A model generated the notes under the pieces. It made no database searches. It saw only the letters and a list, made by a program, of their open reading frames with translations, and had not been told where the DNA came from. A program made the position numbers and the translations under genes. Shown here in pieces: positions 27,941 through 58,014 of a stretch of DNA of 64,000 nt. Origin of the DNA: a virus; IMG/VR virus record IMGVR_UViG_3300025010_000048, positions 1 to 64,000 of that record; one strand, 5' to 3'. Position 1 is the first letter of the stretch. Every line of letters starts with the position of its first letter.

Positions 27941-28080
27941 TCAACTACTCCCACCTACGCTTCGCTTAGAGGTGTGAGCTTGTAACTACCCGGAAGTGCA
28001 AACGAGATAATCTCTCCTTCCTTAGAATGGTGTTACATTAGGGCAGGTTGACATCTACCCACTTATAAAGGTTATACCCC
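27941..28080 (-). ncRNA. Predicted omega RNA scaffold of TnpB
   Basis: The 130 bases after the tnpB stop are rich in stems, with TCACACCTCTAAGCGAAGCG forming part of a paired segment that ends GGTGGGAGTAGTTGA at the element boundary. TnpB omega RNAs occupy exactly this place. The guide would be the adjacent flank, starting CGGCGTACCTCCGTTCG. Position-based; folding not computed. Confidence 0.55.
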
Positions 28081-29190
28081 TATAAGTACTTCAACGATGT
28101 ACTCTATTCCTTTTCGTTGAAGATTCATTGCTCCTATACGGTCATCATTTGATTTGTATCCACAGTTACGACAGCAAAAGATGTGAGCTTTCTTATTGCG
28201 ATTACTTCTCTCTGTATGTCCACACTTGGGGCAAGTTTGAGAAGTGTACTTAGGATTAACAGCTATTACTTTTGAATTATTTAGTAATACCTTATATTCT
28301 AACATTTGTCGTAGCTGATAAAATGACCAGGAGACTGTCTCGTATCTATCTTTAACTCTAACACGTTCTGTAGCATTACGAATACCGGCAAGGTCTTCTA
28401 TTGCAAAAAGAGTATTAGCCCCATATTGATTAACGAGTGCCTTTGATACTTGATGGTTTACATCATGCATCCAACGGTTTTCTCGTTGACCAATTCTCTT
28501 CAATCTTCTGCGAGAAGAAGCTGTACCTTTTTGTTGTAGTTGTTTACGCAAGTATTTGTAATAAGAACGTTTGGCTTTAATTTTTCTACCATTAAAGAAT
28601 ATTGACTTACCTTTTGAATCATAGGTTACTGCAATAAAGTTAATACCTAAATCAACGCCAACAATACTATTGATATCATAATCTGATACCATATCAATCT
28701 CTTTAGACATTGGTATGTGTAAGAAGAACTTACCGTATTTATGCACTAACTTTGCTGTACCAAAAGTCCATGAGTTGTCAAAGTATCTTTCCATACCTTT
28801 AATATCAAATGGTACTTTAATGCGTCCATCTAATGTATTAATAGAGAATATGCCTTTCGTAAGTAGATAATCTCTATTCCATACTAAATCATATTCTGGT
28901 TTTTTAAACTGTATTTTAGTCCAATCGTGCTTATTGCTTTTAAGAGTCTTGTATCTTGCTATTACAGTTTTCATAACCGACTGGGACATTTGAGAACGCA
29001 AAGAGAAGTTGCTACGCAAATCATTGTAGGCTATTTTTTGTAACTTTGATTGAGATAACTCTTTTGTATTAAAGATTATATCAGACACAAAGTTACATCC
29101 TTTACGATAGGCATTAAGAGTTCCCTGGAGTAATATGATTTGTGCTGATGTTGGATTGATTTTGATTTTAGCAGTAACAGTTAATTGCAT
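28072..29190 (-). CDS. tnpB: TnpB RNA-guided nuclease
   Basis: About 372 residues from ATG 29190; an in-frame GTG at 29202 is an alternative. RuvC-like residues are intact: Asp in IVGVDLGINFIAVTYD, Glu in TLFAIEDLAGIRN, Asp in SNDDRIGAMNL. A four-Cys zinc finger CPKCG...CRNCG lies between the last two. It should cut DNA next to a TAM under omega RNA guidance. A promoter TTGCAC-18-TATACT lies upstream inside the element. Confidence 0.9.
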   Translation of the reverse strand: MQLTVTAKIKINPTSAQIILLQGTLNAYRKGCNFVSDIIFNTKELSQSKLQKIAYNDLRSNFSLRSQMSQSVMKTVIARYKTLKSNKHDWTKIQFKKPEYDLVWNRDYLLTKGIFSINTLDGRIKVPFDIKGMERYFDNSWTFGTAKLVHKYGKFFLHIPMSKEIDMVSDYDINSIVGVDLGINFIAVTYDSKGKSIFFNGRKIKAKRSYYKYLRKQLQQKGTASSRRRLKRIGQRENRWMHDVNHQVSKALVNQYGANTLFAIEDLAGIRNATERVRVKDRYETVSWSFYQLRQMLEYKVLLNNSKVIAVNPKYTSQTCPKCGHTERSNRNKKAHIFCCRNCGYKSNDDRIGAMNLQRKGIEYIVEVLIGV

Positions 29191-29286
29191 AGTATACACC
29201 AACTTTCACTAACTATAGAAAGTATATCATATTAGTGAAAACATGTGCAACAAGAATATTAAAGAAGAAAGGAGGGAAGGCGCATT

Positions 29287-37244: not shown

Positions 37245-37438
37245 AGTCACACCTTCCGGTTTCGCAGTTTTCGCAGAATGTGATCTTAGATCGTCTAAGT
37301 AAGATTTAATCTTATTCTTTTTAAGATCATAATAATTATGATTATTATTATTATTTTCGTAGTTGTTTTTCGCTAAGATCGTTGTTTCGCTTCGCACTAT
37401 TCGTAAATAGCTTTCGTACTTATTGTAGTTTTCGCTAA
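37039..37438. repeat. Four TTTTCGYTAA repeats
   Basis: Exact or near copies occur at 37039-37048, 37063-37072, 37367-37376 and 37429-37438; related TTTTCGTAG and TTTCGCAG words lie between. Two are inside and two upstream of the MerR-type gene. They could be its binding sites or a centromere-like cluster. Confidence 0.5.
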
Positions 37439-37511
37439 CTTTCCTTAATGCCTGTCCCACTAATAACCCCTCCGCATCTAAAATTTATAACTAAAAACCA
37501 AGCGGAGAGTC

Positions 37512-37540
37512 TTGACAATCAGACCAACATTGCTTAGAAT
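37512..37540 (+). promoter_or_regulatory. Promoter for a possible small RNA
   Basis: TTGACA and TAGAAT are 17 bases apart, with no ORF following before a terminator at 37705. Confidence 0.65.
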
Positions 37541-37546
37541 AATAAA

Positions 37547-37711
37547 CAGCAAAGCAGGCAGGGGCAACACCTCCGCTTTAGGTAAAGGACACTCAATCTT
37601 TGGTCGGGGAGAGTGTCCTTCGGTCATTTAGTTAGCAATTATTTTACCATTACTTTTTGCATATTTCAACAAATTAATTAAACCCCTCCACGCTGGAAGG
37701 GGTTTTTATTT
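37547..37711 (+). ncRNA. Candidate regulatory small RNA
   Basis: About 165 bases between the promoter and a terminator, without a supported ORF. It contains AAGGACACTC/GAGTGTCCTT, a 10 base-pair hairpin. It runs toward and is bounded by the convergent minus-strand 75-residue gene. The role could be antisense or immunity-type regulation near the CI/Cro switch. Confidence 0.5.
37680..37705. terminator. Bidirectional terminator
   Basis: AAACCCCT and AGGGGTTT pair across 10 bases with T-runs in both directions. It can end both the candidate small RNA and the minus-strand gene. Confidence 0.8.
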
Positions 37712-37938
37712 TATCCGAAAGAGCAACAACCGGAACTGTCACGGAAAGCATTATAACACTCCGCACTATCTGCCAATGCCTGCTTGCCGTTATTGACCCT
37801 GTTTGCAGGTTTTAGGGCGGTTTCATTCAGTGTCTTAATGCCTTCCTCGCTTATATTTCGATTAACCGTGTAAACCTCGTTGTCTGCCACGAATTCAACA
37901 TAATCACTAAAATTTCTAAAGTCAATCTCCAAATCCAA
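37711..37938 (-). CDS. Hypothetical protein near the switch
   Basis: 75 residues, starting MDLEIDFRNFSDYVEFVADN behind GGGGGG. The C-terminus has a Cys cluster (SSGCCSFG). Unknown role, perhaps cotranscribed with the repressor. Confidence 0.5.
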   Translation of the reverse strand: MDLEIDFRNFSDYVEFVADNEVYTVNRNISEEGIKTLNETALKPANRVNNGKQALADSAECYNAFRDSSGCCSFG

Positions 37939-38044
37939 CCCCCCTTTTCTTTTGCGAACACTTGTTTTATGTCATATATATAATATACGAAATATTGTCC
38001 GGAATTTCAAGGACATTTTTACCTAAATTTCCGACAAAATATAA

Positions 38045-38425
38045 TTACAGATTTCTCGCTTTTGTAATAGTATTGAGCAGTTCGGCCACAATCTCAGGTG
38101 GTATACGTTCCTCGTATGCTTTCTTGGCTAACATCATCCAAGGTAAGGATGCTTCATCTAACAGCATTTGCCGCAATTCTTCTGTCATGGCATCGTTAAC
38201 CTCTTTTACGTCAAAGTATGTTCTGATTGATTCCTTGTGGAAATACAAAGGACTTATGTTTAATGCTTTAGCTAACTTTTCAATAGTTTCAATACCGGGA
38301 TTTTTACGCTCACCCCTTTCAATTTGACCAATGGTATTTAGGGCCACTTTAGCTATTTCAGCTAATTTTTCCATCGAGTACCCACGCCTCATTCTTAGAT
38401 TGTGCAACTTATCCTTCAATTCCAT
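38045..38425 (-). CDS. CI-like XRE repressor
   Basis: 126 residues. XRE-type HTH at residues about 8-62: LHNLRMRRGYSMEKLAEIAK, then LNTIGQIERGERKNPGIETI and EKLAKALNISPLYF. A short C-terminal helical domain follows with no peptidase motif. Divergent from the Cro-like gene at 38621 across an operator region; probable lysogeny repressor. Confidence 0.8.
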   Translation of the reverse strand: MELKDKLHNLRMRRGYSMEKLAEIAKVALNTIGQIERGERKNPGIETIEKLAKALNISPLYFHKESIRTYFDVKEVNDAMTEELRQMLLDEASLPWMMLAKKAYEERIPPEIVAELLNTITKARNL

Positions 38426-38457
38426 CTCATTTCCCCCATTCCCTTATCTAGTATGCC

Positions 38458-38541
38458 AGTATATATTTTATTTCAATTATCCACAATTAAGTATATAAAC
38501 TACCCAAAACGGTTGACATTATACCTTTCAAGGTATATACT
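38458..38541. promoter_or_regulatory. Divergent switch promoters and operator
   Basis: Plus strand: TTGACA (38513-38518) and TATACT (38536-38541), 17 bases apart. Minus strand: TTGTGG (38486-38481) and TATACT (38463-38458), 17 bases apart. The perfect inverted repeat TATACCTT-TC-AAGGTATA (38520-38537) fills the plus promoter spacer and part of its -10 box. Confidence 0.75.
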
Positions 38542-38620
38542 TACTCTATTGGACGAGCAATATTTTTTATCCACCTCCTACCTTTAAGAGTAGGATTTAA
38601 CCGAAAAGGAGGTTTAACCC

Positions 38621-38860
38621 TTGAATCTAAAGTTGGTCGGGCAGAACATTTGCCGACTGAGAAAACAACAGGGTATTTTACAACAGACACTATCTGAGCT
38701 AACCGGGTTAACTCAATCTAATATATCAAATATCGAAAACGGTAATACGGGTGACATTTACCTGGGAACCTTAGTAAAAATTGCCGTTGCCCTTAATTGC
38801 AGAGTATCGGATTTGACTTGGGAATCTAGTCATCAATCAAATGTGCCAGAAACAGTATAA
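38621..38860 (+). CDS. Cro-like XRE regulator (TTG start)
   Basis: 79 residues. HTH pattern LVGQNICRLRKQQGILQQTL, then LTGLTQSNISNIENGNTGDI and KIAVALNCRVSDLTW. TTG follows AGGAGGTTTAACCC. The classic divergent partner of the CI-like gene. Confidence 0.8.
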   Translation: MNLKLVGQNICRLRKQQGILQQTLSELTGLTQSNISNIENGNTGDIYLGTLVKIAVALNCRVSDLTWESSHQSNVPETV

Positions 38861-38977: not shown

Positions 38978-39145
38978 CTACTGCAATATTCTCCTAGCCT
39001 TACTAATATTAACATCAATATGCTTTTTAATAGCTTCCTCTAGTTCTTCGGTAACAGTTTTATTGTTTGCAGCCGCAATCATTCTTAGTTTTTGCATCAA
39101 TTCAGCATCTAAATTCAAACTGGTTTTTGCTTTTTCGGCCATCAT
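38978..39145 (-). CDS. Ribbon-helix-helix (Arc-like) protein
   Basis: 55 residues starting MMAEKAKTSLNLDAELMQKL, then NNKTVTEELEEAIKKHI. The TSLNLDAEL strand and two helices fit the fold. It reads away from the plus promoter at 39209 and may control it. Confidence 0.7.
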   Translation of the reverse strand: MMAEKAKTSLNLDAELMQKLRMIAAANNKTVTEELEEAIKKHIDVNISKARRILQ

Positions 39146-39208
39146 ATCACGTCCCTACAAAATTATTTTTATATTTTCATTTTTCCATTATAACTTCAAA
39201 AAAAGATA

Positions 39209-39237
39209 TTGACAAGGTGAGGATATACCATTATACT
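39209..39237 (+). promoter_or_regulatory. Promoter of the Com/AbrB leader
   Basis: TTGACA and TATACT, 17 bases apart. The transcript begins with three tiny ORFs, then the Com-like gene. Confidence 0.75.
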
Positions 39238-39309
39238 ACATATAGGGATTGGCAATGATTGCACATTAAAGAAACATACATACAAACTACCAAACAGGAG
39301 GCACGCCAA

Positions 39310-39333
39310 ATGGTCAAATGTCGAAGCGACTGA
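39310..39333 (+). CDS. 7-residue leader ORF 1
   Basis: AGGAGG, 8-base spacing, then ATG and a stop after seven codons: MVKCRSD. It is nearly identical in product, but not in codons, to the next tiny ORF. Confidence 0.55.
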   Translation: MVKCRSD

Positions 39334-39373
39334 AACCTACCGGTTGGTTAAAAAAATAACCGGAGGTGAGAAA

Positions 39374-39397
39374 GTGATTAAGTGTAGGAGTGATTGA
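39374..39397 (+). CDS. 7-residue leader ORF 2
   Basis: GGAGGTGA, then GTG and seven codons: (M)IKCRSD. Five of six shared codons after position two are the same amino acid; four use a different synonymous codon. A CCGGTT/AACCGG hairpin (39341-39364) overlaps its ribosome site. Confidence 0.55.
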   Translation: MIKCRSD

Positions 39398-39447
39398 AAA
39401 ACTAAAGACCATACACAAACCAAATATCAAAAAGGGAGGAAGATAGC

Positions 39448-39495
39448 ATGGTAGTACGGAGCACATATATTACAATAACTAAATTGAGAGGTTGA
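39448..39495 (+). CDS. 15-residue leader ORF 3
   Basis: GGGAGG, 8-base spacing, ATG, then MVVRSTYITITKLRG. It ends 5 bases before the Com-like start, so termination could couple to it. Confidence 0.4.
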   Translation: MVVRSTYITITKLRG

Positions 39496-39500
39496 CGCCT

Positions 39501-39671
39501 ATGCGACATAAGGAAGCACGTTGCAGTAAATGTAAGAAACTTCTTGGGCGGTACAGCATAGCGCAGGACTTAGAGATTCAATGTCCTCGCTGCAAGACTT
39601 TAAATATAATTAACGATTATCTACAACTAAATAATTTAAACCCAGAGAGCCTTAGAGTCCCAGCGGTTTAA
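39501..39671 (+). CDS. Com-like zinc-finger protein
   Basis: 56 residues: CSKCKKLLGRYSIAQDLEIQ then CPRCKTLN, the CxxC...CxxC ribbon of phage Mu Com, an RNA-binding translational activator. The tail NPESLRVPAV is also typical of the family. No mom-like gene follows; the next gene is AbrB-like. RNA binding is inferred from family. Confidence 0.7.
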   Translation: MRHKEARCSKCKKLLGRYSIAQDLEIQCPRCKTLNIINDYLQLNNLNPESLRVPAV

Positions 39672-39693
39672 TATTTCGAGAGAACCTAGAGTT

Positions 39694-39727
39694 CCAGTGA
39701 AGTATTAATACTACTGGGATTCTTTTT
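39694..39727 (+). terminator. Hairpin/terminator after the Com-like gene
   Basis: CCAGT and ACTGG enclose the 12-base palindrome AGTATTAATACT; GATTCTTTTTG follows. A near direct repeat (TAGAGTCCCAG, TAGAGTTCCAG) precedes it. Confidence 0.55.
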
Positions 39728-39742
39728 GTTTATTTTTAGGAG

Positions 39743-39988
39743 GTGAAAAAAATTAGCGGCTCTATAAGAAAAATAGACTCAACAGGTCGTGTCGTTATGC
39801 CGGTTGATTTTAGAGAGCAACTTGGTTGGAAACTTGGCGACGAGGTTGAAATTAACATACTGGGTAACGAAATATTAGTCAAGGCATATCGGCCAGGGTG
39901 TTACATGTGCGGTTCACAGACCGACTTAAGGCCGTACAGGGGATTTCAGATGTGCCAGAATTGCCGGGGTGAGATAGGGGCATTGTAG
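39743..39988 (+). CDS. AbrB/SpoVT-type regulator with zinc tail
   Basis: 81 residues (GTG behind AGGAGGTG). Residues 1-50 are an AbrB swapped-hairpin domain: GSIRKIDSTGRVVMPVDFRE, LGWKLGDEVEINIL. The C-terminus CYMCG...CQNCRGEIG binds zinc. AbrB controls transition-state and sporulation genes in Firmicutes; here it could control phage or host genes. Confidence 0.8.
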   Translation: MKKISGSIRKIDSTGRVVMPVDFREQLGWKLGDEVEINILGNEILVKAYRPGCYMCGSQTDLRPYRGFQMCQNCRGEIGAL

Positions 39989-40020
39989 GACTTATTTTAT
40001 AGAAAAGGAGGACGAGCAGG

Positions 40021-40263
40021 ATGGAGTTTAAGGAGTGGGATAGGGTTGTTATCGAAAGTATTCCTCCATCACTAAAAGGCAACAAAGGAACCATTGCAAG
40101 TTCAAAAATTGATATGTTTATGGGTAGTATATTTTATGCCGTTAAATTAGATGATTATGTAGATTATGCACACGATTGCAATGGTTTGTGTGAAAATGGT
40201 TATGGTTATTGGATACATAATAAATATTTAACCATTATCACCAACAAAGAGGAAACGGCATGA
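40021..40263 (+). CDS. Hypothetical SH3/KOW-like protein
   Basis: 80 residues: WDRVVIESIPPSLKGNKGTI resembles a KOW/SH3 turn. GGAGG precedes the ATG. No firm family. Confidence 0.5.
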   Translation: MEFKEWDRVVIESIPPSLKGNKGTIASSKIDMFMGSIFYAVKLDDYVDYAHDCNGLCENGYGYWIHNKYLTIITNKEETA

Positions 40264-47128: not shown

Positions 47129-47911
47129 ATGTCTGATCGCATAATCAAAATCCATAAGCGAGAAAACCCTTATGTGCAGATTGATAAGAGTATTCTGAAT
47201 AACGAAAAGTTATCATGGAGGGCAAAGGGGTTACTTGTATACCTGCTTAGTTTGCCTAATGATTGGAAGGTTTATCTTGACGAAGTAACTAAACATTCAA
47301 CAGATAAGATAACATCTACAAGATCAGCTTTTTCCGAATTAAAAGATGCAGGTTACGTTAAAAAAGTTTCCACGAGAGATGATAAGGGACACATAACCGG
47401 ATGGGAAACCATTGTGTATGAAACCCCCAACATAGAAACAGAAAGTCCAGATAGTGGGGAGTCCACATTGTCTGAAAATCCAGATGTGGGGAAACCACAT
47501 TGTGGGGAAACCGACACTACTAATAATAATTATACTAATAATGAAAAACCTAATAACATTAAAACCATTGCTGATAAAAAATCATCATCAGCACACAAAC
47601 AGGTTATTGACCATTATCACAATAAGTTTATTTCTGTTTTTGGTAAAAAACCGTTTATTGATGGTGGCAAGGATGGGAATTTAGTTAAGAATTTGCTAGG
47701 CAACTGTTCATTAGAAGAACTGCTTGACCTACTAGATAAGTTTTTCGATTCAAATGACCCATATGTTATTAACTCAGGTTATACTTTGGGAGTTTTTAAA
47801 ACACAGATCAATAAACTTAAAACGGTAGGGGTTGAGCGAAATAAGGATCAACAACTCACCACCGAAGAAAAAGCAAAAAGAGATTTATACAGTAAACTCT
47901 ATGCTAACTAG
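47129..47911 (+). CDS. O-like replication initiator
   Basis: 260 residues. N-terminal winged helix: YVQIDKSILNNEKLSWRAKG, LTYLLSLPNDWK-like turn, FSELKDAGYVKKVSTRDDKG. A low-complexity linker (residues about 105-150) encodes the iterons. A DnaD-like C-terminal domain follows. Directly upstream of the DnaC-like loader, as in lambda O-P arrangements. Confidence 0.75.
   Translation: MSDRIIKIHKRENPYVQIDKSILNNEKLSWRAKGLLVYLLSLPNDWKVYLDEVTKHSTDKITSTRSAFSELKDAGYVKKVSTRDDKGHITGWETIVYETPNIETESPDSGESTLSENPDVGKPHCGETDTTNNNYTNNEKPNNIKTIADKKSSSAHKQVIDHYHNKFISVFGKKPFIDGGKDGNLVKNLLGNCSLEELLDLLDKFFDSNDPYVINSGYTLGVFKTQINKLKTVGVERNKDQQLTTEEKAKRDLYSKLYAN
47438..47580 (+). other. Predicted replication origin inside the initiator gene
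   Basis: A 16-base period repeat starts at 47454: GTGGGGAGTCCACATT, GTCTGAAAATCCAGAT (degenerate), GTGGGGAAACCACATT, GTGGGGAAACCGACAC. A weaker copy begins at 47438. Each strong copy has a TGTGG/CCACA-type dyad. The following 60 bases are extremely A/T-rich. This is the lambda-type origin layout. Confidence 0.75.
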
Positions 47912-47922
47912 GTGATTAATAT

Positions 47923-48618
47923 ATGTGCGAAATTTGCGGAGATAGGGGCATAGTCCAGATAGAAGGTACTACCTTCAAAGTTTGCGACTGCATGATAAAG
48001 CGAAAAATAATCAACAAATTCAAAGACAGCAAACTAAGCAAGCAAATGTTGTCAAGTAGATTCGATAACTTTAATTATGACTACTACAAAGATAACCTTG
48101 CCGAAATTAAGAAAGCAGTAAAATTAGCACAAGACTTCTCCGATGCGGTTGTAAATGGACAGGCAGCAGATGGATTAATACTGACCGGCAGGGCAGGACA
48201 CGGCAAAACATACTTAGCCTGCTGTATAGCAAACGTACTTATTCGCAAGAACATAGCAACACTATTTACCGTAGTACCGGACCTGTTAGACCAAATTAAG
48301 AGTACATACAACAAAGGCGAGGGCCAGGACTACAGCGAGAAAGACTTATTAGATACTGCCAGAGAAGTACAAGTATTAATTCTTGATGACTTGGGGGCGC
48401 ATCAGTATACCGAGTGGGCCCAAGGAAAGTTATTCACTATCTTAAATCACAGAATAAACTTTAACCTGCCGACGGTCATAACAACTAACCTTAGTTTAGA
48501 GGAAATGGACAAGTTTATCGGGGAACGCGCTGCAAGTAGAATTATTCAACTCTGTCAACCGATTAAGGTTGAAGCTGATATGGATATTAGGATGCAGAAA
48601 AGATTATCTAAGGCATAA
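47923..48618 (+). CDS. DnaC/DnaI-like helicase loader
   Basis: 231 residues. A zinc site (C2, C5, C21, C23), then AAA+ ATPase: Walker A GRAGHGKT at residues 89-96, Walker B VLILDDLGA, and a TVITTNLS sensor. It loads the host replicative helicase at the origin marked by the upstream initiator. Confidence 0.85.
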   Translation: MCEICGDRGIVQIEGTTFKVCDCMIKRKIINKFKDSKLSKQMLSSRFDNFNYDYYKDNLAEIKKAVKLAQDFSDAVVNGQAADGLILTGRAGHGKTYLACCIANVLIRKNIATLFTVVPDLLDQIKSTYNKGEGQDYSEKDLLDTAREVQVLILDDLGAHQYTEWAQGKLFTILNHRINFNLPTVITTNLSLEEMDKFIGERAASRIIQLCQPIKVEADMDIRMQKRLSKA

Positions 48619-48673
48619 CCACGTCCCGGCCAACCGAAAACAGTAGAAATATTCTGAATATAGGAGGATTGTT

Positions 48674-48766
48674 ATGTTGGAAATAGGTCCGAATTTGTTG
48701 GATTTAATTAAGTCTATAGCTGAATTTGCTGCACTTGTAGTGATTTGCTGGATTATTTTTAAGTAG
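48674..48766 (+). CDS. 30-residue membrane peptide
   Basis: AGGAGG then MLEIGPNLLDLIKSIAEFAA LVVICWIIFK (shown in two parts). One hydrophobic helix. Unknown role. Confidence 0.45.
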   Translation: MLEIGPNLLDLIKSIAEFAALVVICWIIFK

Positions 48767-48776
48767 GAGGATACAA

Positions 48777-49169
48777 ATGGAACCAGTAGTTAAATACCAT
48801 TGTCCGGTATGTGATAAGGAATACGACACACCGGAAGAAGCGGAAAAGTGTTTTGTGCCTTTATATGAGAAGTTTAAGAACGGCGATATAATCAGCGGCG
48901 GTTACAATAGTGTTTATGTCGTTAAAGATGCCGAGGAAAGAAATGCCGCTGCCGCAACAGTCAGAGAGGTATTTGAATACTGTATAGCAACTGATTCGCT
49001 CAGGAGGAAAAGAGAAAGGTGTGTCTTGGTCGGCGGTTTTTGGTGTGGTGCCAAGAGATACCCTCTTGAAGAAGCTAAAAAGTTAGTCAGTGACTTACGC
49101 CGCCGGTTGAAAAATGCGGAGAAGTTTTTGGAAATGGTGAAGGAAATGTATGAGGAGGATAAAGTATGA
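48777..49169 (+). CDS. Zinc-finger-start hypothetical protein
   Basis: 130 residues. YHCPVCDKEYDTPEEAEKC at the N-terminus, then an alpha/beta domain. Coupled to the YkgJ-type gene by a 4-base overlap. Confidence 0.55.
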   Translation: MEPVVKYHCPVCDKEYDTPEEAEKCFVPLYEKFKNGDIISGGYNSVYVVKDAEERNAAAATVREVFEYCIATDSLRRKRERCVLVGGFWCGAKRYPLEEAKKLVSDLRRRLKNAEKFLEMVKEMYEEDKV

Positions 49170-49573
49170 GCGAATTTATCTGCATGAACTGCGGAAAATG
49201 TTGTGGTCCTGTGCCTGTCTCAAATACGGACTGGGACAAGATAGTAACAGCAGTAGGAAATATGAACTTTGCCAACATTGAACATCTTGTTAAGCAGAAA
49301 AGGGAAAGCATGACCTGTATTTTACGCGACACTTTTTATAATAAATGTGCAATACATGAGCATAGACCGCTAATTTGTCGCTTACAGGGAACTCAGGAAG
49401 GATTGCCTTGCCCGAATATGCCGAGATACGCCAAGGGTGATAATGGCAGGGTTGCCGTGAATCGTGACTTTGGCGAGAATGGCGAGTATTTCAAGGGAAT
49501 TTTGAGTGACAGTATTGGTTGGAAAGAAATTCTGGAAGTTGTTAGGGAGAGGAAGGAGGTAAACAATGCGTAG
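49166..49573 (+). CDS. YkgJ-type CxxCxxCC protein, copy B
   Basis: 135 residues. FICMNCGKCCGPVPVSNTDW, ILRDTFYNKCAIHEHRPLIC and LPCPNMPRYA. The full-length version of the family, with one extra conserved Cys region compared with copy A at 43775. Function unknown. Confidence 0.75.
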   Translation: MSEFICMNCGKCCGPVPVSNTDWDKIVTAVGNMNFANIEHLVKQKRESMTCILRDTFYNKCAIHEHRPLICRLQGTQEGLPCPNMPRYAKGDNGRVAVNRDFGENGEYFKGILSDSIGWKEILEVVRERKEVNNA

Positions 49574-49973
49574 ACCAACAGTATACCTTTCCGGTAAAAT
49601 GGCCGGTTTGAGTAAAGAAGAAATGAACGACTGGAGAGAGAAAGCGGCGGGAGACTTAGTTGAGGCAGGTTTTTGTATACTTAATCCGGTAAATACCGAC
49701 TTCGGAAGCAATGTAACCGATAGGGAAATCATTGACAGTAACGACTATCAGATTGGACACAGTGACATTATCCTTGCTGAGTTAGACTATGAGCAAATTT
49801 CCATCGGTACAATTTGCGAGATTGTGGAGGCGAGAAGGCAAGGTAAACCCGTAATAACATGGGGTACTGCCTATAACATCATCAATCATCCGCATATTCG
49901 GGGCAGGATTACTAGACACTTTGAGTTTTTGGTCAATGCCGTTCAGTACATTATCGAAAACTATTACTTGTAG
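49566..49973 (+). CDS. DUF4406/deoxyribosyltransferase-like protein
   Basis: 135 residues: TVYLSGKMAGLSKEEMNDWR, LVEAGFCILNPV, DIILAELDYEQISIGTICEI. The Rossmann-like fold of nucleoside 2-deoxyribosyltransferase relatives, common in phages. Probably acts on nucleotides; substrate unknown. Overlaps upstream gene by 8 bases. Confidence 0.75.
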   Translation: MRRPTVYLSGKMAGLSKEEMNDWREKAAGDLVEAGFCILNPVNTDFGSNVTDREIIDSNDYQIGHSDIILAELDYEQISIGTICEIVEARRQGKPVITWGTAYNIINHPHIRGRITRHFEFLVNAVQYIIENYYL

Positions 49974-49984
49974 GAGGTTATGTA

Positions 49985-50158
49985 TTGCTAGAATTATTTG
50001 ACAAAGCACTACTTTATACAACTGTATGTTTAACCTGCTTGCCGTGGATTGTCGTTATTATAATAGGCATTAGGGGCGGTAAAGTAACTGTTGAGTTTGG
50101 GAGAAATAATAAGGAGGCAACCACAAATGCCAAAACAGAAACGCCACAAACAACCTAA
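49985..50158 (+). CDS. Small membrane protein (TTG start)
   Basis: 57 residues from TTG behind GGAGG. Hydrophobic segment TTVCLTCLPWIVVIIIGI, then a Thr/Asn-rich tail. Overlaps the next gene by 32 bases in another frame. Confidence 0.5.
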   Translation: MLELFDKALLYTTVCLTCLPWIVVIIIGIRGGKVTVEFGRNNKEATTNAKTETPQTT

Positions 50159-50318
50159 GCTGAAAATCATAGTTGACCTGCCCAATGACGGCAACCGGAA
50201 ATGGTACGACGAGAAGTATCGGAATATGTTCCGGGATCGCAGGGGAGTTTTGCTGCACGACTATAGGGACGGAATGTCGCCGGGGTATTGCGTGGCAGCG
50301 GTGGAGGTATTTAATTGA
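50127..50318 (+). CDS. Hypothetical basic protein
   Basis: 63 residues from ATG behind AAGGAGG. MPKQKRHKQPKLKIIVDLPN is strongly basic. Coupled to the methyltransferase by TTGA. Confidence 0.5.
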   Translation: MPKQKRHKQPKLKIIVDLPNDGNRKWYDEKYRNMFRDRRGVLLHDYRDGMSPGYCVAAVEVFN

Positions 50319-52225
50319 TTAACGAATTAATAATGGGATCGCTATTTGACGGAGTTGCAATGCTCCCTTTTGCAGCAGAACTTAACGGAATTAGAGCAGT
50401 GTGGGCCAGTGAGATAGAAAAGTTCCCGATAGCGGTAAGTAAACACCATTTCCCTGACATGAAGCACTTGGGAGATATTTGTGGCATAGGATTATGTACT
50501 TACATTACACATTTTAGCGGAACTAAGTGTAATTTTTATATAAACACAGCTAAAGACATTCTGGTTAAACCAGTAGATATAATCACATTTTCAAGCCCTT
50601 GTCAAGATTTGTCAGTCGCCGGTAAAAGGGCAGGTTTGGCGGGAGAGCGTTCTGGTTTGTTTTCTGAGGCGGTAAGAATCATAAAAGAAATGAGGTTTGT
50701 CACAGATGAAATGTACCCAAAATACGCAATCTGGGAGAACGTACCAGGAGCATTTAGCTCAAACAAAGGACAAGATTTTAGAACCGTGCTTGAAGAAATC
50801 ACAGCGTCCGAAATTCCAATGCCTAAGTCTGGAAAATGGGCAAACGCCGGAATGGTCAGAGGGGATGGGTATAGTGTTGCTTGGCGAGTCTGTGATGCGC
50901 AATACTGGGGAGTCGCCCAGCGTCGTAAGAGAATCTTCCTTGTCTGCGATTTTAGAGGACAACGTGCCGGAGAAATACTTTTTGAGTGCGAAAGCGTGTC
51001 AGGGGATTTTGCGGAGAGCGGAGAAGCGAGGCAAGAAGTTGCCGGGAGTGCTGGAAATGGCATTGAGACAACAATCAGGATATTTGACATTGGAGATAGA
51101 CGCAGAGTCGCAGACGAGTCAGTAGGCGTAACACCTACACTGACAATGAAAATGGGTACGGGTGGAAATAATGTCCCCGTAATTTTAAAGCGAGATACAA
51201 TAGCCTTTAACGGCAGACAAGACCCTGTTTATGGACAAGTTACCGGGGCGCTTGATACCGATCGAGCGACACAGTGCATTGCATACCCTGAACCTGCAAA
51301 CGCTCTTCTCGCAAAAGGTAATCTGTCATATCGTGCTGATGTAGATAATTTAGTTTGTGCTGTAGATATCCGCAACCTTTACGAAACTGAGGAATTAAGT
51401 GAAACGCTGCAATCCAAGCAAACAGGTGGTTACTCACTTAACTATCAAAATCCTGTCAGGGTTCCGATTGGAGGAATTAATTATGGCAATGCCGACAAAA
51501 CCAACGCCAGAGAAATATTGTTCGCACTGTGGCGAGAAATTGGAACGGAAGCGTTTTGCAAATGGGCGGTTAGAGTCGTTGAATACTTTCAACAAAAGGG
51601 AATACTGCAACCAGAAATGTATGGCGAAGGGGTTCGAGAGCAAACCGAAACCGAGATCGGAAAACTGGGAAACGAATCATTCCAGATCGAGAAAAATTGT
51701 TCCACCGGGTCCTTGCGAAATATGCGGAAAACCGAATGCTTTAGATGTACACCACAAAGACGAGGATTGGACAAACAACGAACCAGAGAATCTTCAAAGG
51801 ATTTGTCGGAGTTGTCACAACTTAAAGCACAGGCAGAGAAAGCGTTGCGCCATTTGTGGGGAAGTAGCAAAGGGTTATGGATTATGTACAAAGCACTTAC
51901 AGAGATACAAGAAGCACGGAGATCCGATGATAGAAAGGATAAATCCGAGGAAGAAATGCAAAGTATGCGGAGAACCTGCTCACTCGAAAGAGCTTTGTGG
52001 GATGCACTATATGAGAGCGAAAAGAGCAGGGAGCCTGTAAGATATGCGGTGAGACGACTCCTACCCCTGGAATGCGAGCGACTGCAATCGATGCCGGACG
52101 GTTGGACAGATATCCCCGATGCATCCGATACAGCACGATACAAAGCAATCGGAAATTCGCTTGTGATGAATATAGCTGATTGGATATTTAGTCAGATAGT
52201 AAAGGCAGAGAAAGGAGAACTCTAA
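50315..52225 (+). CDS. C5-cytosine DNA methyltransferase
   Basis: 636 residues (TTG). Motifs: GSLFDGVAMLPFAAE (I), TFSSPCQDLSVAGKR with catalytic Cys96 (IV), WENVPGAF near residue 140 (VI), QRRKRIFLVCDF at about 202 (VIII), and a C-terminal RLLPLECERLQSMPDGWTDI and YKAIGNSLVMNI (IX-X). The target-recognition part is long. It probably protects phage DNA from host restriction. Two other ORFs overlap it in the +1 frame. Confidence 0.9.
   Translation: MINELIMGSLFDGVAMLPFAAELNGIRAVWASEIEKFPIAVSKHHFPDMKHLGDICGIGLCTYITHFSGTKCNFYINTAKDILVKPVDIITFSSPCQDLSVAGKRAGLAGERSGLFSEAVRIIKEMRFVTDEMYPKYAIWENVPGAFSSNKGQDFRTVLEEITASEIPMPKSGKWANAGMVRGDGYSVAWRVCDAQYWGVAQRRKRIFLVCDFRGQRAGEILFECESVSGDFAESGEARQEVAGSAGNGIETTIRIFDIGDRRRVADESVGVTPTLTMKMGTGGNNVPVILKRDTIAFNGRQDPVYGQVTGALDTDRATQCIAYPEPANALLAKGNLSYRADVDNLVCAVDIRNLYETEELSETLQSKQTGGYSLNYQNPVRVPIGGINYGNADKTNAREILFALWREIGTEAFCKWAVRVVEYFQQKGILQPEMYGEGVREQTETEIGKLGNESFQIEKNCSTGSLRNMRKTECFRCTPQRRGLDKQRTRESSKDLSELSQLKAQAEKALRHLWGSSKGLWIMYKALTEIQEARRSDDRKDKSEEEMQSMRRTCSLERALWDALYESEKSREPVRYAVRRLLPLECERLQSMPDGWTDIPDASDTARYKAIGNSLVMNIADWIFSQIVKAEKGEL
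50895..51125 (+). CDS. Conserved ORF overlapping the methyltransferase in frame +1
   Basis: 76 codons from ATG. SSLSAILEDNVPEKYFLSAK and ACQGILRRAEKRGKKLP form a recognisable conserved segment that I know from phage methyltransferase regions. The methyltransferase frame across the same bases (GEILFECESVSGDFAESGEA) also looks natural. It may be a separate protein, a frameshift product, or a relic of a different recognition domain. Confidence 0.5.
   Translation: MRNTGESPSVVRESSLSAILEDNVPEKYFLSAKACQGILRRAEKRGKKLPGVLEMALRQQSGYLTLEIDAESQTSQ
51483..52040 (+). CDS. HNH endonuclease overlapping the methyltransferase in frame +1
   Basis: 185 codons from ATG behind GGAGG. The product has KYCSHCGEKLERKRF, the HNH core LDVHHKDEDWTNNEPENLQR then ICRSCHNLKHRQ, and a further zinc pair CKVCGEPAH. 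All catalytic elements are intact. It is coded entirely inside the methyltransferase gene in another frame; the methyltransferase frame also keeps family sequence here (TNAREILFALWREIGTEAF). Confidence 0.75.
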   Translation: MAMPTKPTPEKYCSHCGEKLERKRFANGRLESLNTFNKREYCNQKCMAKGFESKPKPRSENWETNHSRSRKIVPPGPCEICGKPNALDVHHKDEDWTNNEPENLQRICRSCHNLKHRQRKRCAICGEVAKGYGLCTKHLQRYKKHGDPMIERINPRKKCKVCGEPAHSKELCGMHYMRAKRAGSL

Positions 52226-52551
52226 TGAAAAACAAAACCACAAAACTACTCCTAACTTTAGGGGTACCGCCGGAAACATCCGGTTATTTATACGCAAGAG
52301 AAGCAATCTTACTAACCCTAAATACCCCGAACTCCTCATACCGTTGGTGCGAAACCTACGACAAGGTAGCGGAAAAATTCAGCACCACCGGCAAGAGAGT
52401 TGAAAGATGTATCCGTCATACACTCAAGAAAACGCAGGAAAGCGGAACTGTAGAATATGTTGAAATGTTTTATAAGAACACAACTAAACCACCTATTGTA
52501 AGTCGCTTTTTAGCTACAGTTGCCGAGTATCTAAAAATGCAGGATAGTTAG
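52225..52551 (+). CDS. Spo0A C-terminal-domain-like DNA-binding protein
   Basis: 108 residues. LTLGVPPETSGYLYAREAIL, then YDKVAEKFSTTGKRVERCIR HTLKK and KPPIVSRFLATVAEYLKM follow the order of the Spo0A effector domain (LREAI, TTPSRVERAIRHAIE, KPTNSEFIA). No receiver domain. It could bind 0A boxes and block or mimic Spo0A, or regulate phage genes. The recognition-helix match is the main evidence. Confidence 0.75.
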   Translation: MKNKTTKLLLTLGVPPETSGYLYAREAILLTLNTPNSSYRWCETYDKVAEKFSTTGKRVERCIRHTLKKTQESGTVEYVEMFYKNTTKPPIVSRFLATVAEYLKMQDS

Positions 52552-52660
52552 TCAGTTAGAATCGGAAATAACAGCAAAATTAGCCTTGTACAGGCGACTA
52601 AATATTGCAGGAATAGTTTCGTACCTGCTGTCGTGAATGGGGCGTAGAAGGGGGTTTAAA

Positions 52661-53053
52661 ATGCCACCATTGAAAAGGGTTTTATTGAAAGAAGAACTGG
52701 AATACATGAAGCAATGGGGAGGTAAAGCATCACTCTCCAATATTGGAGTAAATTTACTAATGTCCGAGCAACAACTAGGCGCATATATGAAAAAACACGG
52801 CATACCGAGGGCTAATAAGGGTGCTAGACACCTTGCCGCGCCTGATAAATACGAAGGACCAACATCTTATGTGCAGAGAGGAAAGGACAATAGATTCGTG
52901 AATCTTTTTTCTAGGCAGAGAATCGAAGGAAATATTAGACCGCCAGATAAACCCTGGAGCATGGAAGAAAGTTTCGCTAATCCGATAGTATGTGTGAGCG
53001 CAACCGCAGGCGTTATGATTTGGCGAAATAGTGGCAAGGGTGAGTGTCTATGA
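52661..53053 (+). CDS. HTH-containing hypothetical protein
   Basis: 130 residues from ATG 52661. LEYMKQWGGKASLSNIGVNL and MSEQQLGAYMKKHGIPRANK form an HTH pattern. The C-terminus has no known domain. Confidence 0.55.
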   Translation: MPPLKRVLLKEELEYMKQWGGKASLSNIGVNLLMSEQQLGAYMKKHGIPRANKGARHLAAPDKYEGPTSYVQRGKDNRFVNLFSRQRIEGNIRPPDKPWSMEESFANPIVCVSATAGVMIWRNSGKGECL

Positions 53054-53232
53054 TTAGGGTTAACGACACAGTAAAACCTCTCCGTGGTCGCAATAAGGAC
53101 AAGGAGGGCGAGGTAAGGTCGGTATATAAAAGCGGAAAATGTTATATTTACTTCGGTAAAAGTAACTATAATTCTTATTTTCCGAGAAATTTGGAGGTGG
53201 TAACAGGTGGGGAGAGGCGGGGCGAGGATTAA
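53050..53232 (+). CDS. KOW-like small protein
   Basis: 60 residues. MIRVNDTVKPLRGRNKDKEG EVRSVY resembles a KOW motif (shown in two parts). ATG overlaps the upstream stop (CTATGA). May bind RNA or ribosome partners. Confidence 0.55.
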   Translation: MIRVNDTVKPLRGRNKDKEGEVRSVYKSGKCYIYFGKSNYNSYFPRNLEVVTGGERRGED

Positions 53233-53524
53233 GAAGTTAGAGCGCGATAACAAAATATTACTTAAGATAGTTTCTGAACATGCTGTTTCCATTTCTGATA
53301 TTTCTCGCAGATTAGATGGTTATGCTGTGCTGTTTAAAACACTAATAAACGATATGACAACAGCAGGAAATAACGGGAAAACACTTCAATCAGACATTGC
53401 ATTTCTGAATAAGAAGTTGGACGAAATTGAATGTTCCGTTGCCGCATTGAGAGCAGAGCAGGATCATGCGAGGCGTGGATTGTGGAGAAGGTTTTGCGCT
53501 AGGGTTAGGTTGTTTTTCGTGTGA
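53207..53524 (+). CDS. Coiled-coil hypothetical protein
   Basis: 105 residues (GTG). A central helix (LDGYAVLFKTLINDMTTAGN) and a second coiled-coil (LNKKLDEIECSVAALRAEQD), basic C-terminus. Unknown role. Overlaps the upstream gene by 26 bases. Confidence 0.5.
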   Translation: MGRGGARIKKLERDNKILLKIVSEHAVSISDISRRLDGYAVLFKTLINDMTTAGNNGKTLQSDIAFLNKKLDEIECSVAALRAEQDHARRGLWRRFCARVRLFFV

Positions 53525-53567
53525 TGGATTACCTTTTTAGGTATAATATGTATAGTTGGAGGTAAAA

Positions 53568-54242
53568 TTGAGATACATTGTTAGTGTATCAACAGGCAAA
53601 GATTCTACTTGTTTAGCACTATACGCCATAGCAAAATATGGGCGCAAAGATTTAGTTTTTGTAAGTGCTGATACTGGTTGCGAATTTCCGGAAACATACG
53701 AATACCTATATTATCTCGAAAGAAGATTAAATATAAAAATAAACCGCGTCAAAAGCGATAAGTGGGATTATTTTTCCTATTGCCGCCACAGAAGCAAGTT
53801 TCCCGACATAAGAAATAGGTTTTGCACTTCCGACCTAAAGCAAGCACCATTAGCAAAATGGATAACTCATGCAGGTATTGACCGCTATAACGACATTATG
53901 TTAACAGGTGAGCGCAGGGAAGAAAGCGCAAAAAGATCGCAATATAAAGAGATTTACTATAACCCTAAACTCAGGATTGCCGGTTGTCGCCCATTGCTAA
54001 AACTAACTACCAAAGACGTATTTACGGCAATTAGACAGGGTGGACTTGTACCGAATCCAATATATAAACACTTTACCCGCCTCGGTTGTTATGGATGCGT
54101 ATTCAATACCGTTGACGAGTGGGTGCAGTTAAGCAAGTATTACCCTGATTTGTTTAATAAGATTGCAGATTTGGAAAATGAGATTAATTATACTGTCCGG
54201 CAAGGAGAAACATTGAGACAGTTAGTTAATCGGAAAATTTAA
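53568..54242 (+). CDS. PAPS reductase/ATP-PPase family protein
   Basis: 224 residues from TTG behind GGAGG. ATP-binding loop VSTGKDST at residues 6-14, then FVSADTGCEFPETYEYL, CTSDLKQAPLAKW, and RLGCYGCVFNTVDEW. Phage members of this family are probably enzymes of thiol or nucleotide modification; the substrate here is unknown. Next to ThyA-like and dCMP deaminase genes. Confidence 0.8.
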   Translation: MRYIVSVSTGKDSTCLALYAIAKYGRKDLVFVSADTGCEFPETYEYLYYLERRLNIKINRVKSDKWDYFSYCRHRSKFPDIRNRFCTSDLKQAPLAKWITHAGIDRYNDIMLTGERREESAKRSQYKEIYYNPKLRIAGCRPLLKLTTKDVFTAIRQGGLVPNPIYKHFTRLGCYGCVFNTVDEWVQLSKYYPDLFNKIADLENEINYTVRQGETLRQLVNRKI

Positions 54243-54257
54243 TGGGAGGAAAATAAT

Positions 54258-54968
54258 TTGCTAAAACCTACAATTATAAATTGTTTCGACATACCGGAAG
54301 TTTGGTATAGGTCGCTATCTGAGTTATATCATACTCATAGCGGCGGCGATAACCGGGAATACCTTGTGCAGCATGGTAGTTTTGAAAATCAGCATAAACG
54401 AAGGGAATTGGATTATTTTATGGCGGTTATCACTAACCCAGGCAATAGACCGTTAACTCCGATTATACCGGAAGGTTTGAGCGTAGCACCTCCGACAGAT
54501 ATGGAGAAAATTGAGAAGTATTTCGCCGAATACATCTATGGTTCAGAGGTTGCTGAGAATGAGGATTACACTTATGGAGAGCGCATACGAATTAGCTTAC
54601 AGAATGTCATAGAGATTCTAAAAAGAACTCCTGACACCAATCAGGCCATAATTGAAATAGGTCAACCTTTAGATATTTACCTGACAGATCCACCTTGCTT
54701 AAGGATGATTGATTGCCGCATCAAAGACGGTATGTTGCACTTCATAATCTACTTTAGGTCATGGGACATATTTGCCGCACTTCCTGAGAATTTAGGTGGG
54801 TTGCAGTTACTTAAAGAGTATATGGCGACAGAGATTGGTTATGAGGATGGAGGCATGATAATTTCCTCTAAGGGAGCACACGTTTACGATTATGTATGGG
54901 AGCAGGTTAAGCAGTTAGTTAGATATAAGGATACCGAAGTAATACAGGAGGTAGATTTAATTGAATAG
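54258..54968 (+). CDS. Thymidylate synthase-like protein (archaeal/phage type)
   Basis: 236 residues. Catalytic Cys at about residue 147 (DPPCLRMID), YFRSWDIFAALPENLGG with Arg167, Asp170 and Asn178. The Asn is the residue that selects dUMP rather than dCMP in classical enzymes. It may make dTMP or a modified deoxyuridylate. No glycosylation or hypermodification genes follow. Confidence in the fold is good, in substrate moderate. Confidence 0.75.
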   Translation: MLKPTIINCFDIPEVWYRSLSELYHTHSGGDNREYLVQHGSFENQHKRRELDYFMAVITNPGNRPLTPIIPEGLSVAPPTDMEKIEKYFAEYIYGSEVAENEDYTYGERIRISLQNVIEILKRTPDTNQAIIEIGQPLDIYLTDPPCLRMIDCRIKDGMLHFIIYFRSWDIFAALPENLGGLQLLKEYMATEIGYEDGGMIISSKGAHVYDYVWEQVKQLVRYKDTEVIQEVDLIE

Positions 54969-55431
54969 TTTGCAAAGATATATAAAAATACTAAAATTTA
55001 CCGCTAGTCAGTCGAAATGCAAACGCCGCAAGATCGGTGCTCTTGCAATACTAAATAAAGGATATATCTACAAATATAATAGTATTCAAAAGGGCGATTA
55101 TGGTATCTGTGATGAATGTCCAAGGATAGGACAGGAACACGGAAACTGGTCAGGTAACCAAGAATGCCCGGCGATACACGCAGAAGAAGCGGTTATCTTG
55201 AACGCGGCGCGTGGAGGCTATTCTCTGGAGGGTGAGACGTTACTCGTTACTGATAAGCCCTGCAACCGATGTTCTAGGTTAATAGTCGGAGCAGGATTTA
55301 AAAAGGTTATTTATTTAAGCGATATCGGAAGTAATAATGGCATAGACTACCTCCGCAAATGTGGCGTTGAAGTTGAGCAGTACCAAGATGCCGTTATTAT
55401 AGAAAATCCAGATGAAGGGGTGCTGGAATAA
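54961..55431 (+). CDS. dCMP deaminase-like protein
   Basis: 156 residues (TTG). HAEE at residues 73-76 and PCNRC at 100-104 form the catalytic zinc site of the CDA fold. Two further Cys-rich segments (CDECPRIG) match ComEB/dCMP deaminases. It supplies dUMP for the ThyA-like enzyme. 8-base overlap with it. Confidence 0.85.
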   Translation: MNSLQRYIKILKFTASQSKCKRRKIGALAILNKGYIYKYNSIQKGDYGICDECPRIGQEHGNWSGNQECPAIHAEEAVILNAARGGYSLEGETLLVTDKPCNRCSRLIVGAGFKKVIYLSDIGSNNGIDYLRKCGVEVEQYQDAVIIENPDEGVLE

Positions 55432-55829
55432 TGAATATCCATGAAATCAGAGAGTTAGGCAAAAATTTCTGCCAAACAGTTGGTTCAGCACACTACAGGG
55501 AGAACAGTATTGACCCTATAGAGTACGCCATAGCTAACAATATGATTGAGGATTTTTGCCTGATAAACATTATTAAGTATGCCAGCAGGTTTAAGCATAT
55601 CCGTAACCTTGACGATTTGAAGAAAGTTTCCGATTACTCACATATCCTGTGTGGGGTGGAGTTAGAGAAAAAGAATAAAGTTTATCCCGTACTTATACAG
55701 CAGAAACAAAGCAATCACCTGAAAAATTCTGATATTTGCGGTGATTGTAAAAAGGAAGGTAATTGCGACGAACCATGCGAGAAGTTGTATAAGTCTAATA
55801 TTCCAAATAGACCGGAGGTAACTGACTGA
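55431..55829 (+). CDS. DUF3310-type phage protein
   Basis: 132 residues. IDPIEYAIANNMIEDFCLIN and IIKYASRFKHIRNLDDLKKV match DUF3310 (nucleotide kinase-like small phage protein). A Cys-rich C-terminal extension is present (CGDCKKEGNCDEPCEKL). Probably in nucleotide metabolism. Confidence 0.75.
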   Translation: MNIHEIRELGKNFCQTVGSAHYRENSIDPIEYAIANNMIEDFCLINIIKYASRFKHIRNLDDLKKVSDYSHILCGVELEKKNKVYPVLIQQKQSNHLKNSDICGDCKKEGNCDEPCEKLYKSNIPNRPEVTD

Positions 55830-55984
55830 TGAAAAAATCCTGCTTAACCTGCAAGCACGGTAAATTTAAGCAGGTTAATGTGTTAGACTATTGGGAGTGT
55901 TCCGAGTATTCTATTTTTTATGCCGGGCAGTGCCGGGCGGGAAACTTTGGATTGTGGGAGGCAAAAGAAGATGCCGATATATAA
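55829..55984 (+). CDS. Small Cys-containing protein
   Basis: 51 residues: SCLTCKHGKFKQ...WECSEYSIFYAGQCRAGN. One metal site likely. Coupled with the upstream stop; overlaps the next gene by 14 bases. Confidence 0.55.
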   Translation: MKKSCLTCKHGKFKQVNVLDYWECSEYSIFYAGQCRAGNFGLWEAKEDADI

Positions 55985-56276
55985 CGATGGCGACACCAAG
56001 GTTTGTATTTTTGGCAAGGGTGATATTTCAGTATGTACCCTTAAATACAATGGAGGTTATTTTAATACGGTGCTTGGTTTAGTGCAGGACACGCAAAGCA
56101 ACCCTATCGGAACCGAAAACAAGCATCATATTGGACTGAGTGCAGACGAAATGGAAACACATGTAATGATGTATTTCGATAATGTGGCATCGGTAGACTT
56201 TGTTATCAGTAGACTTCAGGTTATTCGTGCAGATTTGGTTAGGATGCAGGAGGGTAAAGATAATGGAAATGAATAA
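55971..56276 (+). CDS. Hypothetical protein
   Basis: 101 residues: MPIYNDGDTKVCIFGKGDIS, later GLSADEMETHVMMYFDNVAS. No motif recognised. Overlaps upstream and downstream genes. Confidence 0.55.
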   Translation: MPIYNDGDTKVCIFGKGDISVCTLKYNGGYFNTVLGLVQDTQSNPIGTENKHHIGLSADEMETHVMMYFDNVASVDFVISRLQVIRADLVRMQEGKDNGNE

Positions 56277-57249: not shown

Positions 57250-57254
57250 AGAAA

Positions 57255-57635: not shown

Positions 57636-57651
57636 GTTTGGAGTTGATTTT

Positions 57652-57987: not shown

Positions 57988-58014
57988 GCAAGAGAAAGAA
58001 AAGAAAAACTCCCC

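What the first reader, a model, noticed from the sequence alone, without database searches (positions are those of the whole stretch)
39209..39740. Twin 7-codon ORFs MVKCRSD / MIKCRSD upstream of a Com-like gene
One promoter is followed by three tiny ORFs with good ribosome sites, then a Com-like RNA-binding protein. The first two ORFs encode nearly the same peptide but use different synonymous codons for Lys, Arg, Ser and Asp. That points to selection on the peptide, not on the RNA. A hairpin between them covers the second ribosome site. This may be a translation-controlled leader acting on Com and AbrB expression.
Basis: partly seen in the sequence, partly recalled or inferred. Interest (0 to 1): 0.75.

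Follow-up and report, generated by a model that had tools for sequence, protein, structure and literature searches.

The report
Phage leader ORFs and Com RNA switch
A phage operon starts with two nearly identical seven-codon genes and a hairpin that hides the second one's ribosome site, and further down it carries two exact copies of the RNA sequence known to be bound by phage Mu's Com protein, laid over a terminator-like hairpin just before the next gene, which suggests that the Com-like protein switches that gene.

Summary
MVKCRSD (39310-39333) and MIKCRSD (39374-39397) have strong ribosome sites, and all five differences within the KCRSD-stop codons are synonymous. A -14.4 kcal/mol hairpin hides the second ribosome site and starts two bases after the first stop codon. 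The peptide is an orphan: no relative was found in IMG/VR or in 398 genomes of one Bacillota-like group. The only related phage covering the locus has the segment replaced. The hairpin gates only ORF2 in the folding model, so leader control of Com is unproven.

A stronger result lies in the same interval. The published Mu Com binding consensus GAGNNCC(N)2-3GAGNNCC occurs exactly twice in the 72,330-base phage genome, at 39645-39661 and 39680-39695, at the com 3' end and in the com-abrB gap. The second copy forms the 5' arm of a terminator-like hairpin. The site recurs at com 3' ends in 20 of 48 non-redundant Com loci (111 times the density elsewhere). A site-plus-hairpin RNA model marks Com-bearing genomes and also precedes unlinked metabolic genes. 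Best reading: a translated leader feeds a Com-controlled attenuator before abrB. The Com half is well supported by sequence; the twin-peptide function is open.

The parts
39209..39237 (+). promoter-like site TTGACA-17-TATACT for the leader/com/abrB unit
   Evidence: 11 of 12 matches; the same hexamers and spacing occur at 38513 before a cro-like gene
39187..39215 (-). divergent promoter-like site TTGTCA-17-TATAAT whose -35 overlaps the + strand promoter
   Evidence: 11 of 12 matches
38978..39145 (-). 55-aa ribbon-helix-helix-like protein, divergent partner
   Evidence: RH3_dom E 7e-4, below Pfam cut-off; no relative found in IMG/VR
39310..39333 (+). mini-ORF1 MVKCRSD, ATG start, SD AGGAGG 39296-39301
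39335..39367 (+). hairpin that pairs SD2 (CCGGAGGT) with sequence just after the ORF1 stop, -14.4 kcal/mol
39374..39397 (+). mini-ORF2 MIKCRSD, GTG start, SD GGAGGTGA 39362-39369
39448..39495 (+). mini-ORF3 MVVRSTYITITKLRG, SD GGGAGGA 39434-39440; stop 5 nt before com ATG
   Evidence: read directly; SD3 0.93 unpaired
39501..39671 (+). com-like gene, 56 aa, two CxxC pairs
   Evidence: PF10122 35.5 bits, cut-off 22.9; PHROG 6417 translational regulator E 9.5e-12
39645..39661 (+). Com site 1 GAGAGCCTTAGAGTCCC, inside the com 3' end
   Evidence: exact match to the SELEX consensus of PMC6483171; one of only two in the 72,330-nt genome
39680..39695 (+). Com site 2 GAGAACCTAGAGTTCC, between com and abrB
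   Evidence: top hit of model R1 over 73,330 searched bases, 25.2 bits, E 8e-5
39688..39723 (+). terminator-like hairpin AGAGTTCCAGT...ACTGGGATTCT followed by TTTTGTTTATTTTT; its 5' arm is the second half of Com site 2, and Com site 1 can pair with the same 3' arm
   Evidence: -15.3 kcal/mol alone; -31.0 with the site 1 arm
39743..39988 (+). AbrB/MazE-type DNA-binding protein with C-terminal Cys pairs (start GTG 39743 or AUU 39752)
   Evidence: PF04014 43.7 bits; nearest relatives in Bacillota phages and plasmids

Best explanation
One promoter makes an mRNA with a translated leader, com and abrB. In the leader, a ribosome finishing MVKCRSD sits on the 5' arm of the hairpin and so opens the ribosome site of MIKCRSD (anatomy shown, coupling inferred). 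Translation then continues with ORF3, which ends at the com start (inferred coupling). The Com-like zinc-ribbon protein binds the two GAGNNCC(N)2-3GAGNNCC sites at the com 3' end (sites shown, binding inferred from the Mu Com consensus). Because the second site is also the 5' arm of a terminator-like hairpin, bound Com would stop that hairpin forming and let transcription or translation pass into abrB (inferred). Most likely the mini-ORFs act in cis, setting ribosome traffic and mRNA supply for com, while Com is the switch for abrB.
For: Twin ORFs, ribosome sites and synonymous differences. SD2 hidden, rarely so in shuffles. Com family. SELEX consensus from PMC6483171 occurs only twice in the whole genome, both at this spot, + strand. 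Same motif at com 3' ends in 20 of 48 non-redundant loci, 1.15 per kb against 0.010 elsewhere, backwards control 0. Site plus hairpin conserved with pairing changes (column pair 18:42 GC 11, AU 8, GU 2). Model built without the window finds 39680-39731 first. In 398 genomes, E<1e-4 hits in 12 of 20 Com-bearing and 1 of 378 other genomes; counting only hits away from com (not in the training set) 4 of 20 against 1 of 378. No + strand promoter-like site between com and abrB. PMC6483171 reports that Com binds its motif weakly inside a duplex, so binding and hairpin should exclude each other.
Against: No expression data. The folded leader hairpin controls ORF2 only; com and ORF3 access does not respond to it. 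RNA binding by this protein is untested; the consensus comes from Mu Com, and identity to annotated Com proteins is only about 50% over some 35-39 residues. Whether Com would open or stabilise the hairpin is not known. The three genomes with most unlinked elements look like close relatives, so the enrichment P values overstate independence. Related phage G008 does without this segment.
Confidence: 0.5

Rival explanations
1. Com acts as in Mu, on translation only: it binds the sites and opens structure over the abrB start region; the hairpin with U run is a mere 3' end of a com transcript and abrB is read from a promoter not recognised here.
For: In Mu, Com activates mom translation from a site next to the mom start (PMC6483171). 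The abrB start is weak or unusual (GTG inside the SD, or AUU), and mom starts with GUG. Mostly proteobacterial Com loci keep the site inside com, 63-109 nt before its stop.
Against: The abrB ribosome site is not in the site-bearing hairpin; its predicted access (0.38) hardly changes when the com 3' end is freed (0.39). The Bacillota-type elements end in a U run, which a translation-only switch does not need.
Confidence: 0.25
2. MVKCRSD/MIKCRSD are made for a job in trans: a small heptapeptide, expressed twice for dose, that binds a host or phage protein.
For: Coding constraint: five of five differences in KCRSD-stop are synonymous; two copies with strong ribosome sites; the microcin C precursor shows that a 7-codon gene can make a product (own knowledge).
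Against: No relative of the peptide found; no peptide-modification or export gene was recognised among the proteins scanned here, though not all phage genes were scanned.
Confidence: 0.15
3. The mini-ORFs are ribosome-loading decoys: strong SDs near the 5' end that protect the AU-rich leader mRNA from decay; the peptide sequence is irrelevant and the twin is an old duplication.
For: Precedents: the six-codon mini-ORF of the LEE4 leader and the minigenes of axe-txe (PMC8708949). Leader SDs are stronger than the com SD (AGAGG).
Against: Does not explain why, with 8 of 24 bases changed, all differences in the KCRSD codons are synonymous.
Confidence: 0.15
4. Common antisense RNA target: the two copies are alike because one antisense RNA pairs with both through G-U wobble (four of five changes are transitions).
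For: Antisense of ORF1 would pair with 22 of 24 bases of ORF2.
Against: No other place in the 72,330-nt genome pairs with both better than the reversed-sequence control (19 of 24 against control 19); the minus-strand promoter reads away from the ORFs.
Confidence: 0.05
5. Non-functional remnants of N-termini of a Cys-rich or Com-like small protein, truncated and duplicated.
For: One unrelated 206-kb viral contig has a Cys-rich ORF beginning MIKCRSDEKPCC (L225); Com proteins have similar [KR]CxxC starts.
Against: That ORF has no relatives in PHROGs or the phage records, so a chance match is likely; both copies stop at the same residue and keep strong SDs.
Confidence: 0.1

Closest known systems
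Bacteriophage Mu com-mom
   Same: Com-type zinc ribbon; binding consensus GAGNNCC(N)2-3GAGNNCC next to the following gene; following gene has a weak start (PMC6483171)
   Different: Next gene is an AbrB-type regulator, not a DNA-modification gene; the two genes do not overlap; the site overlaps a terminator-like hairpin with U run; three mini-ORFs precede com
Translational attenuators of cat and erm genes (own knowledge)
   Same: Short leader ORF whose stop or stall point lies at a hairpin hiding the next ribosome site
   Different: The gated ORF here is a second copy of the leader peptide, not the output gene; no inducer known
B. subtilis rtpLP-rtpA (anti-TRAP) leader (own knowledge; anti-TRAP as a small zinc protein in PMC11255114)
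   Same: Leader peptide ORF ending next to the start of a small zinc-binding regulator gene
   Different: Peptide here has no run of a sensing codon; anti-TRAP and Com are different zinc proteins
Mini-ORF leaders of LEE4 and axe-txe (PMC8708949); tandem leader ORFs of mgtCBR (PMC3641672)
   Same: Short cis-acting ORFs in a leader, with a strong SD in LEE4
   Different: Not twin peptides; in LEE4 the hexapeptide itself is reported not to matter

Membership tests
Com (Zn_ribbon_Com, PF10122) | Match above the Pfam gathering score | tested here: met
   35.5 bits against 22.9
Com (Zn_ribbon_Com, PF10122) | Two CxxC pairs of the zinc ribbon | tested here: met
   RCSKCKK...QCPRCKT in 39501-39671
Com (Zn_ribbon_Com, PF10122) | Cognate bipartite RNA site at the com 3' end | tested here: met
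   39645-39661 and 39680-39695, the only two in the genome
Com (Zn_ribbon_Com, PF10122) | Binds RNA and activates expression of the next gene | not testable with these tools
   needs EMSA and reporter assays
Mu com-mom operon | Downstream DNA-modification gene overlapping com | tested here: not met
   next gene is PF04014 AbrB/MazE-type, starting 71 nt after the com stop
Translational attenuator (cat/erm type) | Leader ORF with own ribosome site | tested here: met
   ORF1, AGGAGG, ATG
Translational attenuator (cat/erm type) | Hairpin hiding the ribosome site of the next ORF, reachable by the leader ribosome | tested here: met
   unpaired probability 0.003; ribosome at ORF1 stop raises SD2 access to 0.50
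Translational attenuator (cat/erm type) | The gated ORF is the regulated output gene | tested here: not met
   gated ORF is mini-ORF2; com access unaffected in the model
Translational attenuator (cat/erm type) | Ligand- or starvation-dependent stalling | not testable with these tools
   needs toeprinting
Intrinsic terminator | Stable hairpin followed by a U run | tested here: met
   39688-39723, -15.3 kcal/mol, then TTTTGTTTATTTTT; the consensus scanner, which allows loops of 3-8 only, did not list it
Known Rfam RNA families | Match above gathering score | tested here: not met
   no Rfam match at the com-abrB element in the window or in 11 element-bearing loci

The most novel reading that the evidence does not exclude
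Com-type zinc ribbons outside Mu are general RNA-binding antiterminators: in a Bacillota-like group of bacteria and their phages they act on a conserved element, the bipartite GAGNNCC site fused to an intrinsic terminator, found after com and before unlinked operons such as a cobalamin adenosyltransferase/methylmalonyl-CoA mutase operon. The window phage carries such a switch in front of an AbrB regulator, driven by a twin-heptapeptide leader.
Probability: 0.4. Interest if true: 0.82.

Novelty: new variant of a known kind. Interest (0 to 1): 0.6.

Why it matters
Com is known mainly from one phage gene pair. If the element is what it looks like, Com proteins form a family of RNA-directed switches with a readable site, present on bacterial chromosomes and in phages, and their target genes can be listed from sequence. 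The twin mini-ORFs would be a rare case in which the code itself shows constraint on a seven-residue leader peptide inside a single genome.

Tried and rejected
Relatives of the peptide: the IMG/VR scan of SD + xKCRSD + stop gave one match (L002) which, read by codons, stops after MGKCR (the degenerate serine letters allow TGA), so it is no relative. The scan without the stop gave two: one reads MIKCSCD in L224, the other is a Cys-rich ORF without known relatives. 398 genomes gave none. Relatives by neighbours: AbrB, the ribbon-helix-helix protein and the repressor gave only G008 or nothing. Near-identical contigs of the same phage do not include the locus. Antisense partner for both copies: none above control. 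No tRNA and, apart from a group I intron elsewhere, no Rfam family. DNA similarity to named phages: short chance-level pieces only. Whole-leader folding is not more stable than shuffles (z 0.01); only the local hairpin stands out. Bare motif counts across genomes are noisy: GAGAGCC(N)2-3GAGNNCC has hits in 141 of 398 genomes, so the site-plus-hairpin model was used instead. No mini-ORF pair like the twin was seen upstream of the other com genes examined.

Full report
Setting. The window is part of a 72,330-base IMG/VR phage record whose ends overlap, with a P22-type terminase and portal. Its AbrB protein has its closest named relatives in Bacillota phages and plasmids, so the host is probably a member of Bacillota; this is inference. 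Late genes lie on the minus strand, early genes on the plus strand.

Observation. Both seven-codon ORFs exist as described. They differ at 8 of 24 bases. Within the codons for K, C, R, S, D and stop there are five differences and all are synonymous; the start codon (ATG/GTG) and V/I are the rest. A simulation of five random changes gives a chance of 7.5e-5 to 9e-4 that all keep the peptide. The test was formed after the pattern was seen and rests on one pair, so it is suggestive rather than final. No other SD-preceded mini-ORF pair in the window shares five residues. The hairpin 39335-39367 hides SD2 almost completely, which 0.6% of spacer shuffles match.

What the leader can do. The hairpin starts two bases after the ORF1 stop, so a terminating ribosome covers its 5' arm. 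Constraining those bases to be unpaired raises mean SD2 access from 0.25 to 0.50. Occupying ORF2 changes neither ORF3 nor com access in the model. ORF3 ends five bases before the com ATG and contains the com SD, so local coupling there is plausible but untested. Thus ORF1-to-ORF2 gating is well founded in anatomy, and a chain to com is not.

Conservation. No comparable mini-ORF was found in IMG/VR or in 398 genomes. One related phage, G008 (IMGVR_UViG_3300025011_000038), keeps the neighbouring repressor and cro region (37429-38838, 80% identity) and the end of abrB (39873-40031, 81%). It has a different sequence in between, so the leader, com and the abrB 5' part form a replaceable cassette. 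Records very near the window's own genome may be left out of the scans.

Com. The 56-residue protein passes the Com gathering score and matches PHROG 6417, translational regulator. The Mu Com SELEX consensus is NGAGNNCC(N)2-3GAGNNCCNN (PMC6483171). In the full phage genome, both strands, it occurs exactly twice: 39645-39661 and 39680-39695, both on the coding strand, at the com 3' end and between com and abrB.

This is not a peculiarity of one phage. Among 48 non-redundant com loci, 20 have the motif within 250 bases before to 150 after the com stop, at 1.15 per kb against 0.010 per kb elsewhere in the same loci; the motif written backwards is never found. In the mostly proteobacterial set it lies inside com. 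In the group of genomes around G015 (the record titled Halothermothrix sp.) it lies mostly 18-92 bases after com, and in most of these its second half is the 5' arm of a hairpin followed by a U run. The hairpin keeps pairing through changes on both sides at several positions. The window has the same layout: AGAGTTCCAGT of site 2 pairs with ACTGGGATTCT, then TTTTGTTTATTTTT. Site 1 carries a near copy of that arm and can pair with the same partner.

A covariance model from 21 such elements, without the window, ranks 39680-39731 first in the phage (25.2 bits, E 8e-5). In 398 genomes of the group it finds E<1e-4 matches in 12 of 20 genomes with a Com gene and in 1 of 378 without. Most of the former are com-adjacent and were used in the model. 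Counting only places away from com, 4 of 20 against 1 of 378 (Fisher P 2e-5), but three of the four genomes look closely related. These unlinked elements precede a cobalamin adenosyltransferase/methylmalonyl-CoA mutase operon (L282, L284), a thiolase (L286), a CapA-like gene (L283) and a C_GCAxxG_C_C-like gene (L281) (gene names are my reading of the translations). No Rfam family covers the element, and the literature search gave no description of it (only open-access papers are held).

Mechanism. Com is reported to bind its motif poorly inside a duplex (PMC6483171), so Com binding and the terminator-like hairpin should exclude each other. With no plus-strand promoter-like site between com and abrB, Com-dependent read-through into abrB is the simplest reading. 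A Mu-like effect on abrB translation is the main rival; the abrB start is odd (GTG inside the SD, or AUU with correct spacing). Shown: sequence sites, their rarity, their conservation, the overlap with the hairpin. Inferred: binding, direction of effect, role of the leader ORFs.

Verdict. The twin ORFs are real and look coding, but are an orphan with unproven function. The larger result is a Com site plus terminator element in the same interval. It fits the known Com-mom case in its parts and differs in target gene and in the overlap with a terminator, hence a new variant of a known kind.

Noticed in passing
window 8799-9132, minus strand: Group I intron (Rfam RF00028, 61.8 bits, E 3e-13) among late genes.
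   Followed up: no
window 28075-29205, minus strand: TnpB/Cas12f1-like OrfB protein (PF07282, PF01385) between late and early regions.
   Followed up: no
G006 (IMGVR_UViG_3300024999_000162) against window 47858-59316: Early region matches in the opposite orientation relative to the late region when compared with the window: a rearrangement, an invertible segment or an assembly fault.
   Followed up: no
window 1-60: Long inverted repeat GATATGCCTGATATGGTTAAAAACTT...AAGTTTTTAACCATATCAGGCATATC at the record start.
   Followed up: no
L211 2229-2389 (G008): abrB remnant: the conserved C-terminal part remains with an in-frame stop and without its N-terminal half.
   Followed up: partly
L226, L227, L229: Two com genes in tandem, each followed by its own GAGAGCC..GAGCCCC hairpin element.
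   Followed up: partly
L282, L284: Com-site/terminator element upstream of a cobalamin adenosyltransferase and methylmalonyl-CoA mutase operon in two genomes.
   Followed up: partly
L287 1367-1424 of the reverse strand: Several GAG..CC boxes before an integrase gene in G172, a genome in which no Com gene was found.
   Followed up: no
L225 9745-9940, minus strand: Cys-rich small ORF beginning MIKCRSDEKPCCDYCKYC in a 206-kb viral contig; no relatives found.
   Followed up: partly
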